Positions 43,399 to 51,480 of a stretch of 64,000 bases of DNA are shown piece by piece. Under the pieces are notes generated by a model that did not search any database, was not told the origin of the DNA, and saw nothing but the letters and a program-made list of their open reading frames with translations. Position 1 is the stretch's first letter; every line of letters begins with the position of its first letter. The stretch is from a virus. The stretch spans positions 1 to 64,000 of the IMG/VR virus record IMGVR_UViG_3300025030_000046; one strand, given 5' to 3'. Position numbers and translations under genes: made by a program.

Positions 43399-43878
43399 TT
43401 AATTATTTTCAAAATTATAAATAGTCACATCATAATTCTCAAATATTCGGTTAATCATATCGTAAACAACATTCCAGTCTCCGCCACCTAATCCACAACC
43501 AAGATTATAAGGAATAGCCACTGAGTAACCATTGAGAGAACTATTTGTATTATTAACTGCTTTATATACAATTTTTAAAGCCTTTGCTAATGCTGCATAA
43601 TCTGTCTGTTGAATATGTGTTCCATAATTACTTTGTCCACATAGGTTAGCTATAATTTTATTATCATGTGTAAATACACCAAATATAACTTCTCCTAATA
43701 ATGATTGATTCTCTGACAAATATTCTTTACAAATATGGCGATAATTTGCATAAACGTACGGATATTTCTCTTTAATCTGGTAAGCTAAACCTCCACCCAT
43801 AACACCCATACAATTAACTTGATGACAAATTATATCTTCTGTCGCTTCTAGGATATTGCCTTCAACTATTTTAATCAT
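43399..43878 (-). CDS. macrodomain protein (ADP-ribose binding)
   Basis: A 159-residue stand-alone macrodomain. It shows the start VEGNIL, the ribose loop HQVNCMGVMGGGLA (19-32) and the phosphate loop AIPYNLGCGLGGGDW (121-135). It resembles the Poa1p/ALC1-like branch (VNCMGVMGGG, then GCGLGGGDW) rather than the classic MacroD form. Such proteins remove ADP-ribose from protein or nucleic acid, or hydrolyse ADP-ribose-1''-phosphate. The phage PARP lies one gene upstream, so writer and eraser share an operon. Confidence 0.88.
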   Translation of the reverse strand: MIKIVEGNILEATEDIICHQVNCMGVMGGGLAYQIKEKYPYVYANYRHICKEYLSENQSLLGEVIFGVFTHDNKIIANLCGQSNYGTHIQQTDYAALAKALKIVYKAVNNTNSSLNGYSVAIPYNLGCGLGGGDWNVVYDMINRIFENYDVTIYNFENN

Positions 43879-44384: not shown

Positions 44385-45590
44385 TTACCTCAATTCCACT
44401 AAATATTGTATAGTTAATTGCTCTTCTTTATATACTATAATTTCATCATTTCTCAACATTGATCCAGCATGAGCATGTAGACAATTAGCTCCTGCACAAT
44501 TTTTTTGTAGCGATTCGTAATTAAAATTATAATATTTACTATCAAATGAATATGCGTCATATGGTTTTCCATAAGCTACATTGTATAAACTCATAAAAGC
44601 TGAATTAGAACTTCCTCCAGCCCAATATGAGCCATGCAGCGAAGTATATCCTAAACTCTTTTGTGCCGATGGTGCAAAATAAATCCCATGACCAAACATC
44701 TTACCCGTAATTACTGCTGATGGTCTTAAAACTAAGCCAGTATTAATGATTGACCACCAATTTTCATTCCTAGAACCATGCCATAATAGTTTTATATTTT
44801 TGATACTTGCATCTTTAGTAAATTTATTAAACTTTTCTTGAGTTTTTAAATTAATAACTTTCCAAGCTTGATAAAATTTATCACTACATGAGCCAAGATT
44901 TTGCTTAATTAATTGCTTTTCTTGTTGTGTAATTTCCTCAAATCTTAATCCTACAGCATCTAAAATAGTTTGGTTTATAGTTGGAGAATCTTCTTCCTCA
45001 ATATTTTCTTCAACAATAGATTGTTGTACAACTTGACCCTTCATTATATCAAGCAAATCTTGCTCTCTTTGAATTGTTTCTCCAAAGTCTTTTTTATCAG
45101 TAGCTAAATAATCTTTAACTTTTCCCATTTTACGAGGTATAATTCTAAATAATTCAATGAGAACTTTGTTAAACAATTCAATATTGTCAGTAGTAATTAG
45201 ATTATTTAGTGTGACCTGTGCTTCATCTATCATTGTTTTTGTAACTTTGTTTGATGATATTGTGTAATTATCTGCGATAGCCTGTCTTGCCATAGATTGA
45301 AGCCTTGCTACTATAGCTGATATTGACGCATTTTCAATATCCTTATACTCTTTCTTCTTTTGTTTAACAATTGTTTCTGCTACTAGCCTTGTTTGATCGA
45401 GATAGCCTTTTCTTAACTTTTCATTAAGCTTCTTATTCCATTGCGACATAGAATATTGTGCGGTTTGGTATCCTGAATTTCCAACTCTCCCAAATTGAAC
45501 TTCAAACATATCTCCGTTGGGTATCATTCTATAGTATTTATTATTGTTGGCATCCGCTTCTACCATGACTAAATACAACGAACCTTCCAT
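44385..45590 (-). CDS. WGR-domain poly(ADP-ribose) polymerase
   Basis: A 401-residue PARP. A WGR-type domain spans about 5-70 (FGRVG at 33-37 instead of WGR, then WNKKLNEKLRKGY). A helical regulatory-like domain follows (about 100-200). The catalytic ART domain has the full H-Y-E triad: H271 (LLWHGSRN), Y304 (GHGIYFAPSAQKS) and E383 (NDEIIVY). It would transfer ADP-ribose from NAD+ and, with E present, may build chains. ATG at 45590 follows GAAAGGAG; the longer frame overlaps the upstream gene. No zinc fingers are present, so WGR alone would sense nucleic acid. Confidence 0.93.
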   Translation of the reverse strand: MEGSLYLVMVEADANNNKYYRMIPNGDMFEVQFGRVGNSGYQTAQYSMSQWNKKLNEKLRKGYLDQTRLVAETIVKQKKKEYKDIENASISAIVARLQSMARQAIADNYTISSNKVTKTMIDEAQVTLNNLITTDNIELFNKVLIELFRIIPRKMGKVKDYLATDKKDFGETIQREQDLLDIMKGQVVQQSIVEENIEEEDSPTINQTILDAVGLRFEEITQQEKQLIKQNLGSCSDKFYQAWKVINLKTQEKFNKFTKDASIKNIKLLWHGSRNENWWSIINTGLVLRPSAVITGKMFGHGIYFAPSAQKSLGYTSLHGSYWAGGSSNSAFMSLYNVAYGKPYDAYSFDSKYYNFNYESLQKNCAGANCLHAHAGSMLRNDEIIVYKEEQLTIQYLVELR

Positions 45591-45634
45591 ATCTTCTCCT
45601 TTCCACATAAAACATAAATTTTCTTGTAATTTTA

Positions 45635-46354
45635 TCAATTTTCCAACCATTTATTATCAAAATAATAGAACAATGCTACCAATCCTAATATAAATATTAT
45701 CCAGAATATCCAAAAAATAAAAGTACTTGAGTCTGACGTAACCAGCTTCATTGTTTTATCTATTGTCATATCTTTATAAAACATTGCTCCATCTTTACTG
45801 ATATTTCTGTCTAGCAAACAAGCAAATATAGTACCTTTTAATTCTGGCTTGCACCCATAATATTGATATCTTATGTGTGGTGATTCGTTAATTGTAGTAA
45901 TATGATCCTCGCCTTGTCTATTAAATTGAGAATAATTAAAGTTCTGTCCACAAAAAGTAACTTTTTTACCTACAAGTGATTCAGATTGAACCGTATCCCA
46001 CGTCCAGTACGTTTCTGTTCTATGATGCGTACTTTTACCGACCCTATAAGATACTTGTCTGGTGTGCATAGTGTATCGCTCTTTGTTTTTAGCAATGGAG
46101 AGGTATTTACCTGAAATTTCTGGATATGCTACTGCATCTACGGCTTTCAAATCTCCGTATATAAAGGCATTTCCAATACTTGTATCCATGCCATATTTAA
46201 ATAATTCTGCACTCTCTATTTTAGTTGCTTTATTATATTTATCATTCGCATCTATAAGATTATCTGATATCTTGCCAACAATTAGAAATCCAATTAATAA
46301 CATGATTGCAACAATAGATACGCTGGCTATAATTTCTCTTTTTGTAATCTTCAT
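45635..46354 (-). CDS. two-helix membrane protein of the LemA-PARP operon
   Basis: A 239-residue protein with hydrophobic helices at about 8-30 and 212-232 and a large domain between them. The middle has YTMHTRQVSYRVGK and TETYWTWDTVQSESLVGKKV. The layout is like TMEM43/GIDE-type proteins often linked to LemA, but I cannot confirm the family. ATG at 46354 follows the LemA stop directly (TAATATG). Confidence 0.62.
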   Translation of the reverse strand: MKITKREIIASVSIVAIMLLIGFLIVGKISDNLIDANDKYNKATKIESAELFKYGMDTSIGNAFIYGDLKAVDAVAYPEISGKYLSIAKNKERYTMHTRQVSYRVGKSTHHRTETYWTWDTVQSESLVGKKVTFCGQNFNYSQFNRQGEDHITTINESPHIRYQYYGCKPELKGTIFACLLDRNISKDGAMFYKDMTIDKTMKLVTSDSSTFIFWIFWIIFILGLVALFYYFDNKWLEN

Positions 46355-48154: not shown

Positions 48155-48264
48155 TGCGGTTGGCAGGACTCAAACCTACACGTAACTTGTAGTCAGTTGA
48201 CACATGATATTTAGTATGACACGCCTCATGCTGGCGATGCGTCTATCAATTTCGCCACAACCGC
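48155..48264 (-). ncRNA. oversized tRNA-like RNA (class II, degenerate)
   Basis: The ends fold as a tRNA: acceptor GCGGTTG/CAACCGC, D stem GCG/CGC with a Leu-type loop, T arm GTAGG-TTTGAGT-CCTGC, and discriminator A. The CCA is not encoded. The anticodon-position hairpin CGCC-AGCATGA-GGCG lacks U33. About 40 bases replace the variable arm, with GTGTCA twice and an AACT/AGTT hairpin. At 110 nt it is some 20 nt too long. It is either a decaying tRNA-Leu, one with a duplication, or a tRNA-like RNA. Confidence 0.6.
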
Positions 48265-48490: not shown

Positions 48491-48859
48491 CTAACATGTA
48501 TAAGGTTCGTCACAACCGTTATACCATTGATGAGCCAGTATATAAATATCTGTGGGCTTGAAATTTAGCTTATTTTTATATTGATTAATTATCTTTTTAA
48601 TATCAGCCAAACTCATATAAAATTCGGGATCATTGCCATCAGACCAATCATTACAAATAATAATATCCACATATAATTCATCATTATAATCAATAATTCT
48701 TATATTATCCTTTTCTAATATTTTATTAATTTCATACAAATCTTTACCATCTTCCATATGTACATTTAGCAAGTCTTTATTCATTATAGATAATAATTCT
48801 TTGATGTTTTGAAACTCTGTTTTTAATCTTATACAATTAGTAGTCATATAATCGCTCAT
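48491..48859 (-). CDS. hypothetical protein
   Basis: A 122-residue acidic protein, mixed alpha/beta (MSDYMTTNCIRLKTEFQN). No motif; begins behind AAAGGA. Confidence 0.58.
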   Translation of the reverse strand: MSDYMTTNCIRLKTEFQNIKELLSIMNKDLLNVHMEDGKDLYEINKILEKDNIRIIDYNDELYVDIIICNDWSDGNDPEFYMSLADIKKIINQYKNKLNFKPTDIYILAHQWYNGCDEPYTC

Positions 48860-48888
48860 AATATCATCCTTCCTTTAAAATCTGTCTT

Positions 48889-49062
48889 TTATCTGAAAAA
48901 TTTCCAATAACTTTTATGATAACCACATTTTTTACATGTTACAGAAACTTTATCACCTTCTCTGCTCCCACAAAAATCACTTTTTTCTACATAATATTTT
49001 TCTTCATAATTAAAATCGTGATTGCAAAAACATTCTTTAAAATAATTTATTAGCCACTTCAT
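48889..49062 (-). CDS. small zinc-finger protein
   Basis: A 57-residue frame with CFCNHDF and CKKCGYH pairs, a probable zinc finger. TTAAGGAG lies 6 bases before ATG. It directly follows the large structured RNA region. Confidence 0.65.
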   Translation of the reverse strand: MKWLINYFKECFCNHDFNYEEKYYVEKSDFCGSREGDKVSVTCKKCGYHKSYWKFFR

Positions 49063-49083
49063 AACCTTCTCCTTAAAATAAGC

Positions 49084-49626
49084 ATTTCAAATTAATTAAT
49101 GTGGCGAGCAGGATTTGAACCTGCACAATACTTATGGCTCTAATAATCTACACTAACGCTTTAATACGTTACGCCTGTCACCTAGGATTCTTGCCACCTC
49201 TGGACTGTGTAAACACATTCCACACCTCGATTATTAGCTGAACCACGTTTGACGACTAATTAGTCCTAGTATCACATTATTGTCTTCAGCGTGTATTTAC
49301 GTTTCACCATCGCCACATATATAATTTGTAACTGGTAGGTTGGCAACCCTACATCTCTTTAAGACCATTTCTAATATATATTTTAAAATACACTATTAAA
49401 AATTCCTAACATCATTCCTGAAAATTAGTTTCTGGCGTGGCAGCCGCCCATTCTGCCCTCAGTTACAAATATTTAATTTACAAAGGTAGAACCATTTTAT
49501 ATAGCACGTTCACTTATTAGCTACTTCAACCTACTTCTATATCACTTTTGATCCAAATGCATTTGGCAGATATATATTAAGCCTTAACTCCAAACTTTTC
49601 AGCCACCTTTGTAATTAATTTAAAAT
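49084..49626 (-). ncRNA. large structured RNA candidate, 543 nt
   Basis: No reading frame of note occurs here. On the minus strand the two ends pair in a 15-bp helix with one G-U (49612-49626 with 49084-49098). Inside are nested perfect helices: 49605-49614 with 49478-49487; 49460-49470 with 49324-49334 (11 bp); 49310-49316 with 49101-49107; 49285-49290 with 49237-49242; 49229-49237 with 49140-49148; and a T-arm-like hairpin at 49108-49124. The 3' third thus has tRNA-like ends around a 130-nt insert. Size, phage setting and nearby tRNA-like RNA recall the ROOL and GOLLD classes, but identity is not shown. It lies downstream of the strong promoter at 50.77 kb. Confidence 0.7.
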
Positions 49627-49633
49627 TGTCCTT

Positions 49634-50071
49634 TTATTGTATCAGAGTATTTAATATCATCAGAATTCTATTAAATAAATCTCTGTCTTTGGGATTATCT
49701 CTGTCTAACAAATAATCAAATCTTCTCCCATAGCCTTCAAATAAATATATTTCTAGGTTATTATAGTTGTTAACCATATTTCTCATCGAGTCATATACAT
49801 TCTTATTCAATGCATATGCATCCATCATTGCTGTATAATTAAATAAGTCTTTTACAGTATCTTGTAAACTTTCATCTGACACTACTTCTAACGCATTTGT
49901 AAGATCCTTGCCGCTTGTTAATTGACTAATTCTTTTTAACTTATCTTCAGCTCTTACTGCATAAGCTATATCTCCCCATTTATCAAGCGATTCATTAAAA
50001 CTATTACCATACAATTGATTTTTAGCTTTAAAAACTCTGAATTGTTCTTGTACAAATGATTCTTTGCTCAT
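49634..50071 (-). CDS. Nmad1/DUF1599-like protein
   Basis: A 145-residue helical protein with KNQLYGNSFNESLDKWGD, YAVRAEDKLKRISQL and DESLQDTVKDLFNYTAMM. This matches the nucleotide-modification-associated domain 1 (DUF1599), of the MazG-like fold, found in phages with altered nucleotides. ATG at 50071 follows GGAGG. It may act on a nucleotide pool component, which would fit the TK, dUTPase and nucleotidase genes. Confidence 0.8.
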   Translation of the reverse strand: MSKESFVQEQFRVFKAKNQLYGNSFNESLDKWGDIAYAVRAEDKLKRISQLTSGKDLTNALEVVSDESLQDTVKDLFNYTAMMDAYALNKNVYDSMRNMVNNYNNLEIYLFEGYGRRFDYLLDRDNPKDRDLFNRILMILNTLIQ

Positions 50072-50086
50072 TTCGACCTCCAAATT

Positions 50087-50725
50087 TTATATTTTATTTT
50101 TAAGAATATAAACATCTAATTTTTGCACTCCAAAATCCATAGCGTCTGAATTATTTTTCATATAAACATCTATACAATTATTTTTTATTGCTCCGCCTCT
50201 ATCCTCGGCTATAAATATGCCCTCATTTGGATAGTCTTTAAAATATGGTATGTATATTTTAGTTCCAAATGGTATTCGTTTACCTGTTGCTATTGTGTGC
50301 CATTCCTTGACCTTTTCTCCCGATGCAGTAATTCCATATGCAGGACTACTAGGATATTTTTGGCAAGATTCATAAGACAAATCATAAGCAGTAACTTTCA
50401 TTTTACATTTTTCAATTACCTCAAATCTATCAAAATTACCTCTCGATGATAATTCTATTGCTCTTTCTTTTATATTTTGTTTTATTGGGATAGGTTTAAT
50501 TTCTTTTGGTTTATGTGTGTTTATAACCTTTTTAGCTTCGATATTCGGCTTAGATTTTGGTATTGGATTTATTTTTTCTATGCCGCTTTTAATGCTTTGA
50601 AAAACTAGCAACAATGCTGCTGTTAATATGAGTGCTATAATGAATGAAAATCTTTTTAAGTGACGTATTTTTATTCTGTATCTTCGATTTGTTTTGAGAG
50701 ATTTAAATATTAATTTTTTGAACAT
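50087..50725 (-). CDS. membrane-anchored 3D-domain protein
   Basis: A 212-residue protein with one N-terminal helix (about 26-44), a proline- and lysine-rich spacer, and a C-terminal 3D domain (VTAYDLS at about 112, GITASGEKV, IPFGTKIYIP, EDRGGAIKNNCIDVYM). The 3D domain is a double-psi barrel related to MltA lytic transglycosylases and named for its three aspartates. It should act on peptidoglycan outside the membrane. It is first in an operon with a near-consensus promoter. Confidence 0.85.
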   Translation of the reverse strand: MFKKLIFKSLKTNRRYRIKIRHLKRFSFIIALILTAALLLVFQSIKSGIEKINPIPKSKPNIEAKKVINTHKPKEIKPIPIKQNIKERAIELSSRGNFDRFEVIEKCKMKVTAYDLSYESCQKYPSSPAYGITASGEKVKEWHTIATGKRIPFGTKIYIPYFKDYPNEGIFIAEDRGGAIKNNCIDVYMKNNSDAMDFGVQKLDVYILKNKI

Positions 50726-50752
50726 TATATATCTTCCCTCCCTTCGTTTAAT

Positions 50753-50781
50753 ATTATATACTATGTGTTTTCTGGTGTCAA
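50753..50781 (-). promoter_or_regulatory. near-consensus sigma-A promoter
   Basis: TTGACA (50776-50781) and TATAAT (50753-50758) on the minus strand, exactly 17 bases apart: both boxes are perfect. TAAAATATAAAATA lies just upstream. It drives the 3D-domain gene, the Nmad1-like gene and the large RNA. Confidence 0.95.
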
Positions 50782-50811
50782 CAACTATTTTATATTTTAG
50801 TTTATTGATTT

Positions 50812-51480
50812 TTATATTATTATTCTTTCAAAATCCAGTGTTTCAGTATCTATTGTCCAGCCTCTCAATTCGTTCCTTTCATGTCTACAAGCACAGTTAA
50901 ATACCAGTGTATTGCCTATTTCATCAACTCCTGCTGCTTCATGTATATGCCCACATAGCCATATTTTAGGTTGTTTTTCTTCTATTAGTTTTCTTATACT
51001 CTTACTACCAACTTCTCTACCATCATTACATTTATCTAAACATTGATATGGAGGATCATGAGCAATTACGATTGATTGATTATCTATCTGCAATTTGCTT
51101 AATTCATAAGCTATTTTATTTTCATTAGCCTCTCTATTAGTTGTAAATGGCGTAATATGTACTAACTCAAACGGTACTAAAAATTGTTTTGTATAATGGC
51201 AATTTGGTAAATATCTTAAATCATAACTATCTGCTTCCATCCAGTCGTCGTTTGATAGGATGAAGTGTGTACGATATTTATCTGACTGTAATATATTTAG
51301 TATATCATCTAAATCTTGTTTTTGTTTTTTACCAAACTCAATTAATGTTCCTCCCCAATTTTTACCACCAATATCTCCACAGATTATTAATTCATCTGTG
51401 TCTGAGTTTTCAAGAAATTTTTTAAGGTTACGTGCAATTATTTTATTGCCATGTATATCGCTCGTCGCAAAAATTTTCAA
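50812..51480 (-). CDS. calcineurin-like metallophosphoesterase
   Basis: A 222-residue phosphoesterase with TSDIHGN, ICGDIGG, LSNDDW (in place of GNHD), AHDPP and CGHIHE, the metal-binding motifs of the family. TTG at 51480 is chosen because GGAGG lies 7 bases upstream; the ATG at 51495 precedes it. Substrate unknown; phage members may act on nucleotides or cyclic nucleotide signals. Confidence 0.85.
   Translation of the reverse strand: MKIFATSDIHGNKIIARNLKKFLENSDTDELIICGDIGGKNWGGTLIEFGKKQKQDLDDILNILQSDKYRTHFILSNDDWMEADSYDLRYLPNCHYTKQFLVPFELVHITPFTTNREANENKIAYELSKLQIDNQSIVIAHDPPYQCLDKCNDGREVGSKSIRKLIEEKQPKIWLCGHIHEAAGVDEIGNTLVFNCACRHERNELRGWTIDTETLDFERIII

What the first reader, a model, noticed from the sequence alone, without database searches (positions are those of the whole stretch)
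49084..49626. A 543-nt ORF-free region that folds as one closed, ornate RNA
On the minus strand the ends form a 15-bp helix (one G-U), and at least five further perfect helices of 6-11 bp nest inside, including a tRNA-like acceptor/T-arm pair at 49101-49124 and 49310-49316. Three sub-domains of about 137, 147 and 217 nt are each closed by their own stem. Long perfect stems in ORF-free phage DNA are unlikely by chance, although the outer helix is AT-only and overlaps one inner helix by three bases. Established knowledge: the ROOL and GOLLD RNAs are large phage-linked ncRNAs often found near tRNA genes. Inference: this is one of them, a relative, or a new class.
Basis: partly seen in the sequence, partly recalled or inferred. 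Interest (0 to 1): 0.88.

Follow-up and report, generated by a model that had tools for sequence, protein, structure and literature searches.

The report
Phage skipping-rope RNA beside tRNA-like domain
The gene-free stretch of this bacterial virus encodes a known but unexplained small RNA (a 'skipping-rope' RNA) immediately followed by a swollen, tRNA-derived RNA, and comparison of about 50 relatives shows that the skipping-rope RNA has the two-dimensional layout of a tRNA, which gives its unknown function a testable lead.

Summary
On the minus strand of a 139-kb phage record, 49084-49626 lies between two co-directional genes, lacks ORFs and folds better than shuffles (z -3.0). The 15-bp AT outer helix is no better than chance. 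The region is not ROOL or GOLLD. Its middle domain (49327-49467) is a skipping-rope RNA, Rfam RF02924 (57.1 bits, cut-off 36.7). In about 50 homologues its helices covary strongly. Junction spacers 2/1/4/0 nt, and a constant GG-CC contact between the second-arm and fourth-arm loops, match the tRNA cloverleaf and elbow. That resemblance is my inference; no tRNA profile hit was seen. The 3' domain (49100-49316) has a perfect 7-bp acceptor and T arm around 185 nt of remodelled sequence. It resembles phage T4's stable species 1 RNA and a large set of anticodon-less tRNA-Leu-like elements I found in viral contigs. A second, shorter case sits at 48155-48264. One other phage carries a long skipping-rope inside a tRNA-like frame. 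Most likely this is a processed, non-decoding, tRNA-shaped RNA cassette. It is a new variant built from a known RNA family. Processing and function are inferred; tRNA decay is the main rival.

The parts
49327..49467 (-). Skipping-rope RNA (RF02924) with a 63-nt insert in its P3 arm. P1 49467-49460/49334-49327; P2 49457-49453/49443-49439; P4 49352-49348/49339-49335; loop-loop contact GGC 49448-49446 with GCC 49344-49342; core AAAGAGATG
   Evidence: 57.1 bits, E 5.2e-11, gathering 36.7; alignment; helices covary in 19 and 51 distinct homologues
49100..49316 (-). tRNA-derived 3' domain: acceptor 49316-49310/49107-49101 (7/7), T arm 49124-49108 (GCAGG UUCAAAU CCUGC), discriminator A 49100, D-arm-like UGGUGAAACGUAAAUACACGC 49309-49289, stem 49289-49285/49242-49238 around a 42-nt loop, 9-bp variable-type arm 49237-49229/49148-49140; no encoded CCA
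   Evidence: Sequence; 0 in 40 shuffles; weak tRNA model match at 49100-49153, 16.5 bits, below cut-off
49480..49612 (-). Unassigned 5' domain closed by a 10-bp stem; its 5' side (ACAAAGG UGGCUGA..GUUAAGGC) resembles a tRNA-Ser acceptor and D arm but there is no intact T arm
   Evidence: Fold; no homologue found
49084..49626 (-). Proposed AT-only outer helix 49626-49612/49098-49084: not distinguishable from chance
   Evidence: 2 such helices in the window versus 1.3 in shuffles
48155..48264 (-). Second odd tRNA-Leu-like element, 110 nt, acceptor GCGGUUG/CAACCGC, Leu D arm, T arm, enlarged middle; no encoded CCA
   Evidence: 32.4 bits with the Rfam tRNA model, over cut-off 29; missed by ARAGORN and by the fast Rfam scan
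49634..50083 (-). Upstream co-directional gene, 149 aa; distant relatives in Lactococcus, Streptococcus and Bacteroides phages
48889..49062 (-). Downstream co-directional gene, 57 aa, with a ribosome-binding-site-like AAGGAG just 3' of the tRNA-like domain
50753..50781 (-). Perfect-consensus promoter TTGACA-17-TATAAT upstream of the 50087-50725 gene; the only strong minus-strand promoter-like site near, so the RNA region is probably read through as part of an operon
   Evidence: 12 of 12 matches; consensus match only

Best explanation
The region is an intercistronic non-coding cassette on the minus strand. It holds (1) an unassigned closed 5' domain, (2) a skipping-rope RNA of family RF02924 with an unusually long third arm, and (3) a tRNA-derived domain that keeps the acceptor/T-arm minihelix but has lost a normal anticodon arm. 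Shown: family membership, covariation of the family's helices, acceptor and T arm. Inferred: the skipping-rope RNA folds into a tRNA-like L (P1 on P4 as acceptor on T arm, P2 on P3 as D on anticodon arm, P2-loop/P4-loop contact as the elbow); the cassette is cut out of an operon transcript, with tRNA-processing enzymes (RNase P at 49316/49317, RNase Z or CCA addition at 49100) trimming the tRNA-like domain and so freeing the 3' end of the skipping-rope RNA; and the products act as stable, non-decoding tRNA look-alikes during infection, most plausibly by occupying a host protein that handles tRNA.
For: RF02924 match well over cut-off. 26 named pairs, including the loop-loop contact, are formed in 89.8% and 91.4% of cells, with 98 and 253 both-side changes against shuffled means of 32 and 77, 0 of 500 shuffles as high, and collapse when partners are slid. 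Spacers are 2, 1, 4 and 0 nt in all 50 complete distinct sequences, with P1 7-9 bp, P2 5 bp, P4 5 bp; these are tRNA numbers. Skipping-rope genes lie next to tRNAs in some phages: at the 3' end of tRNA-Asp beside a tmRNA in Lactococcus phage phiL47, between two tRNA-Met genes in L008, near tRNA-Met in L012. In L006 a skipping-rope with an equally long P3 sits inside a tRNA-like frame with the same T stem (GCAGG UUAAAAU CCUGC) and the GUAAAUACA motif. The acceptor/T-arm pair cannot be chance. T4 species 1 RNA (rnaC) has the same build: T arm CCGGG UUCGAAU CCCGG, long variable arm, swollen middle, and is reported expressed late with unknown function (PMC9697503). The intercistronic position without its own promoter or terminator fits excision.
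Against: No tRNA-family match to a compact skipping-rope even at E 10, so the likeness is of layout only. Only 5 of 57 skipping-ropes (besides the window) have an ARAGORN-callable tRNA within 1.5 kb, and about 24 are solitary genes with a terminator of their own, so tRNA processing is not general. The tRNA-like domain of the window has only one candidate homologue, whose acceptor has a U-U at its first pair. The 15-nt stretch before the T arm is not seen in real tRNAs. No expression data. Related phages with skipping-ropes (L364-L366) show no T arm directly beside them.
Confidence: 0.4

Rival explanations
1. Skipping-rope RNA plus decaying tRNA genes. The phage once carried a tRNA array; the tRNA-like domains here and at 48155-48264 are former tRNA genes swollen by insertions, without function, and only the skipping-rope part is under selection.
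For: The tRNA-like domain has no usable anticodon arm and is uncalled by ARAGORN; the 48155-48264 element has a poor anticodon loop; the 5' domain keeps only half of a tRNA-Ser-like pattern; homologues are scarce.
Against: Decay should hit all stems alike, yet acceptor and T stem are perfect (12 of 12 pairs). Among 200 inflated Leu-like elements in viral contigs, 167 keep a 7/7 acceptor with 66 different sequences, while only 4 of those 167 have a normal 5-bp anticodon stem, against 22 of 38 ordinary ones: selective retention of the upper half.
Confidence: 0.3
2. Cis-acting structured mRNA element. The skipping-rope is part of the operon mRNA and controls processing or expression of the neighbouring genes, with the invariant AAAGAGAUG core binding a protein or small molecule.
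For: Intercistronic here and, tightly, in L366 (67-nt version between two genes); a nine-base core and loop-loop contacts are typical of ligand-binding RNAs.
Against: About 24 of 57 copies are stand-alone units followed within 150 nt by a terminator, many with -10-like boxes upstream; neighbouring genes differ between loci.
Confidence: 0.18
3. A tmRNA variant: the tRNA-like domain is the tRNA half and the frame GCU GAA GAC AAU (AEDN...) is a tag-like open frame.
For: A frame AEDNNVILGLISRQTWFS** starts like clostridial tags (from memory) and ends in two stops; phiL47 carries a true tmRNA near its skipping-rope.
Against: No tmRNA match to the window; third acceptor pair is G-C, not the G-U needed for alanine charging (established knowledge); the frame does not end in a hydrophobic tag; only about 217 nt.
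Confidence: 0.03
4. ROOL or GOLLD relative forming an RNA cage.
For: Phage location, length and tRNA association are similar (PMC12286853).
Against: No Rfam match at E up to 10 in 1.1 kb; the domains are otherwise accounted for.
Confidence: 0.02

Closest known systems
Skipping-rope RNA, Rfam RF02924
   Same: Core sequence, four helices, loop-loop pseudoknot (a pseudoknot is shown for this family in PMC7779021), phage setting
   Different: 141 nt instead of about 80 because of a 63-nt P3 insert; intercistronic; directly followed by a tRNA-derived domain
Bacteriophage T4 species 1 RNA (rnaC, 139 nt)
   Same: tRNA-type T arm and 3' end, long variable arm, swollen middle, no normal anticodon arm, phage-encoded; in T4 next to tRNA genes
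   Different: Likeness of anatomy only, sequence homology not shown; T4's acceptor is weak (5 of 7 by eye) while this one is perfect; 139 versus 217 nt
tRNA-Leu (class II tRNA, RF00005)
   Same: Acceptor, T arm, discriminator A, U8 and a Leu-like D arm
   Different: About 185 nt instead of about 50 between acceptor and T stem; no 7-nt anticodon loop; below the model cut-off (16.5 bits)
ROOL and GOLLD RNAs
   Same: Large structured phage RNAs often near tRNA islands (PMC12286853)
   Different: No model match; different anatomy

Membership tests
Skipping-rope RNA (RF02924) | Score over the curated gathering threshold over the whole model | tested here: met
   57.1 bits versus 36.7, model 1-80 of 80
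Skipping-rope RNA (RF02924) | Conserved core, P1-P4 and loop-loop pseudoknot | tested here: met
   All present in the window copy; covariation in the family
Skipping-rope RNA (RF02924) | Expressed as a discrete RNA | not testable with these tools
   No RNA data
ROOL / GOLLD | Match to the Rfam models | tested here: not met
   None at gathering level on the window nor at E up to 10 on 48800-49900
Canonical tRNA (RF00005) | Acceptor, D, anticodon and T arms at standard spacing | tested here: not met
   Acceptor and T arm met; 42-nt loop in place of the anticodon loop; 16.5 bits, below cut-off 29; no ARAGORN call
tmRNA (RF00023) | Match to model or program, G-U third acceptor pair, tag ending in a hydrophobic sequence | tested here: not met
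   No match; G-C third pair; frame ends TWFS
tRNA-shaped RNA (works like, not member of) | Cloverleaf junction spacers, D/T loop contact | tested here: met
   2/1/4/0 nt in 50 of 50 sequences; constant GG-CC contact; P4 and loop-4 bases were partly fixed by the search pattern, P1 and P2 were not
tRNA-shaped RNA (works like, not member of) | Sequence-profile homology to tRNA | tested here: not met
   No tRNA match for a compact member at E up to 10
T4 species 1-like stable RNA | Acceptor/T arm with swollen, anticodon-less middle; stable late RNA | tested here: inconclusive
   Anatomy alike; expression not testable here

The most novel reading that the evidence does not exclude
Skipping-rope RNAs are a family of phage tRNA mimics that lack a decoding arm, and large phages carry cassettes of such non-decoding tRNA-shaped RNAs (skipping-rope, T4 species 1 type and swollen tRNA-Leu type) that keep the parts read by tRNA-handling proteins while the anticodon half is replaced, possibly as decoys for host enzymes that cut or modify tRNA.
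Probability: 0.25. Interest if true: 0.8.

Novelty: new variant of a known kind. Interest (0 to 1): 0.5.

Why it matters
Skipping-rope RNA is widespread in phages and prophages of Bacillota but I found no reported function in the held papers. A tRNA-shaped fold would turn an orphan family into something directly testable with tRNA biochemistry (RNase P, CCA enzyme, synthetases, anticodon nucleases), and culturable Lactococcus phages (phiL47, AM1, WRP3) carry copies. The many swollen, anticodon-less tRNA-Leu-like elements that standard tRNA finders miss point to an overlooked layer of phage RNA.

Tried and rejected
ROOL/GOLLD. tmRNA. A second, divergent skipping-rope inside the tRNA-like insert: not found with a custom covariance model with filters off. 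Outer 15-bp helix as evidence for a closed RNA. Group I intron in the tRNA: no Rfam match, insert too short. Homologues of the 5' and 3' domains by blastn and nhmmer in all loci fetched by then: only T-arm matches. Close relatives through the adjacent 149-aa protein: none in viral contigs. Relatives through the PARP gene: 76 loci, but the RNA region is not syntenic; 3 of 31 related records searched (several of them fragments) carry a skipping-rope elsewhere. The pattern GTAAATACA..CYGAAGWC alone was too loose. The paper I remember as the first description of skipping-rope RNA (10.1093/nar/gkx699) is not held, so I cannot say whether its authors noted the tRNA likeness.

Full report
WHAT IS THERE. 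The window is part of a 139-kb virus record. Genes around 49 kb run on the minus strand; 49084-49626 lies between a 149-aa gene (50083-49634) and a 57-aa gene (49062-48889) and has no ORF of note. The minus strand folds better than dinucleotide shuffles (z -3.04, 0 of 100; plus strand -1.83). The outer 15-bp helix is A/T only (one G-U) and no better than chance: two such helices occur in the window and 1.3 per shuffle. The region is best read as three closed domains in a row.

MIDDLE DOMAIN. Rfam 15 gives one family in the region: skipping-rope, RF02924, at 49467-49327 minus, 57.1 bits against a cut-off of 36.7. No ROOL or GOLLD match appears at E up to 10. I collected homologues from viral contigs (26 pattern hits, most confirmed by Rfam) and from genomes, built a covariance model and aligned 56 matches. 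On 19 sequences 89.8% of cells pair, with 98 both-side changes against 32 in shuffles; on 51 distinct sequences 91.4%, 253 against 77; sliding partners by one base drops pairing to about 40%. Bases fixed by my search pattern (AAAGAGATG, GG, GCC, CC, CC) are not evidence, but P1 and P2 were not in the pattern and vary in a compensatory way at seven of eight and four of five pairs. The window copy keeps every core feature and has a 63-nt insert in P3.

TRNA LAYOUT (inference). In 50 of 50 complete distinct sequences the spacers are 2 nt (P1-P2), 1 nt (P2-P3), 4 nt (P3-P4) and 0 nt (P4-P1); P1 is 7-9 bp, P2 and P4 are 5 bp with loops of 8-10 and 8-11 nt, P3 varies freely from 16 to 79 nt. These are the junction numbers of the tRNA cloverleaf (positions 8-9, 26, the 4-5 nt variable loop, 0), and the constant GG of the P2 loop pairs with CC of the P4 loop as the D and T loops meet in tRNA. 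No tRNA family matches a compact member even at E 10, so this is likeness of layout, not shown homology. The paper I remember as the original description of the family is not held; I cannot tell whether this has been noted before.

3' DOMAIN. 49316-49100 minus has a perfect 7-bp acceptor, a perfect consensus T arm and discriminator A, with 185 nt between acceptor and T stem. Such a pair occurs once in the window and never in 40 shuffles. The tRNA model gives 16.5 bits to its 3' part, below the cut-off. Its start, GUGGCGA UGGUGAAACGUAAAUACACGC, resembles a tRNA-Leu D arm; a clearer Leu-like element of 110 nt lies at 48264-48155 (32.4 bits, over cut-off), missed by ARAGORN. In another phage (L006) a skipping-rope with an equally long P3 sits inside a tRNA-like frame with the same T stem and the same GUAAAUACA motif. 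T4's stable species 1 RNA, annotated beside its tRNA genes, has the same anatomy and is reported as a late RNA of unknown function (PMC9697503).

A WIDER CLASS. Of 200 D arms whose nearest T arm lies that far, 167 have a 7/7 acceptor, with 66 different acceptor sequences; only 4 of 167 have a normal 5-bp anticodon stem right after the D arm, against 22 of 38 ordinary tRNA-Leu in the same loci. ARAGORN without introns calls none of 146 distinct ones (the count of 167 of 167 printed came from a faulty test in my script). The mispairing control is not negligible (333 of 3745 pairs of different acceptors still match when G-U is allowed, because many are near-identical), but it is far below the observed rate. 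So retention of acceptor and T arm with a replaced middle is common in phages. This argues against simple decay of the window's element, though it does not prove function.

CONTEXT OF SKIPPING-ROPES. Of 57 copies, about 24 are followed within 150 nt by a terminator-like hairpin, many with -10-like boxes upstream: solitary genes in prophage-type sequence. The longest P3 arms are in phages with large records. Five lie within 1.5 kb of a callable tRNA. In Lactococcus phages phiL47 and AM1 the skipping-rope lies in a stretch with tRNA genes and no annotated protein gene nearby; phiL47 also has a tmRNA there. In the window no promoter or terminator of its own is predicted; the nearest strong promoter is at 50781-50753, two genes upstream.

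MECHANISM. Most likely the cassette is transcribed with the operon and cut out. The acceptor/T-arm minihelix is what RNase P, RNase Z and CCA enzyme read (established knowledge), so the tRNA-like domain could serve as the cut signal that frees the skipping-rope RNA, and either product could act as a tRNA look-alike. Shown: family, helices, minihelix, position. Inferred: shape, excision, target. Main rival: a skipping-rope gene beside decaying tRNA genes.

NOVELTY. The middle domain is a member of a known family. The long P3 and the attached tRNA-derived domain make the locus a variant, seen in related form in one other phage. The claim that the family is tRNA-shaped would be the important part if confirmed.

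Noticed in passing
viral contigs L371-L569; window 48155-48264: Large set of swollen, anticodon-less tRNA-Leu-like elements with perfect acceptor and T arm, rarely with encoded CCA, not called by ARAGORN; most common acceptor AGTCAGG/CCTGACT.
   Followed up: partly
window 44385-45650 and 43399-43878: A WGR/PARP-like ADP-ribosyltransferase gene next to a macrodomain-like gene (named by eye from the sequence); 76 viral loci carry the relative, many with the macrodomain adjacent.
   Followed up: partly
L365 (related phage record G001, around 26.3 kb): A skipping-rope RNA lies between an IscB-like RuvC/HNH gene and a tyrosine-recombinase-like gene (named by eye), with about 320 nt of structured sequence before it.
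   Followed up: partly
Lactococcus phage phiL47 (KF926093) 50544-50892: Phage-encoded tmRNA (113 bits, proposed tag VKTKLNIIANTQLAVA); the annotated table shows no tmRNA feature there. The DNA is conserved at 94-97% in related Lactococcus phages.
   Followed up: partly
window 27517-31872: Replicative DNA polymerase (DnaE type by eye) that appears to contain an intein (CFEKNTKVLTK ... VEGISVHNC).
   Followed up: no
L006 and L021 (IMGVR 3300035034_002798): The same skipping-rope stretch is present twice in opposite orientation with at least 9.9 kb identical, probably an inverted duplication of the assembly.
   Followed up: no
L015 and L018, flanks of the skipping-rope: A repeated element around CTAGATAAGTTxATATA ... 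TATTCTAGTTA(R)CAC flanks skipping-ropes in two phages; could be another RNA or a regulatory repeat.
   Followed up: no
L349 513-714: A tRNA-Leu-like frame that seems to contain a second T arm and a second Leu D arm, as if two tRNAs were nested.
   Followed up: no
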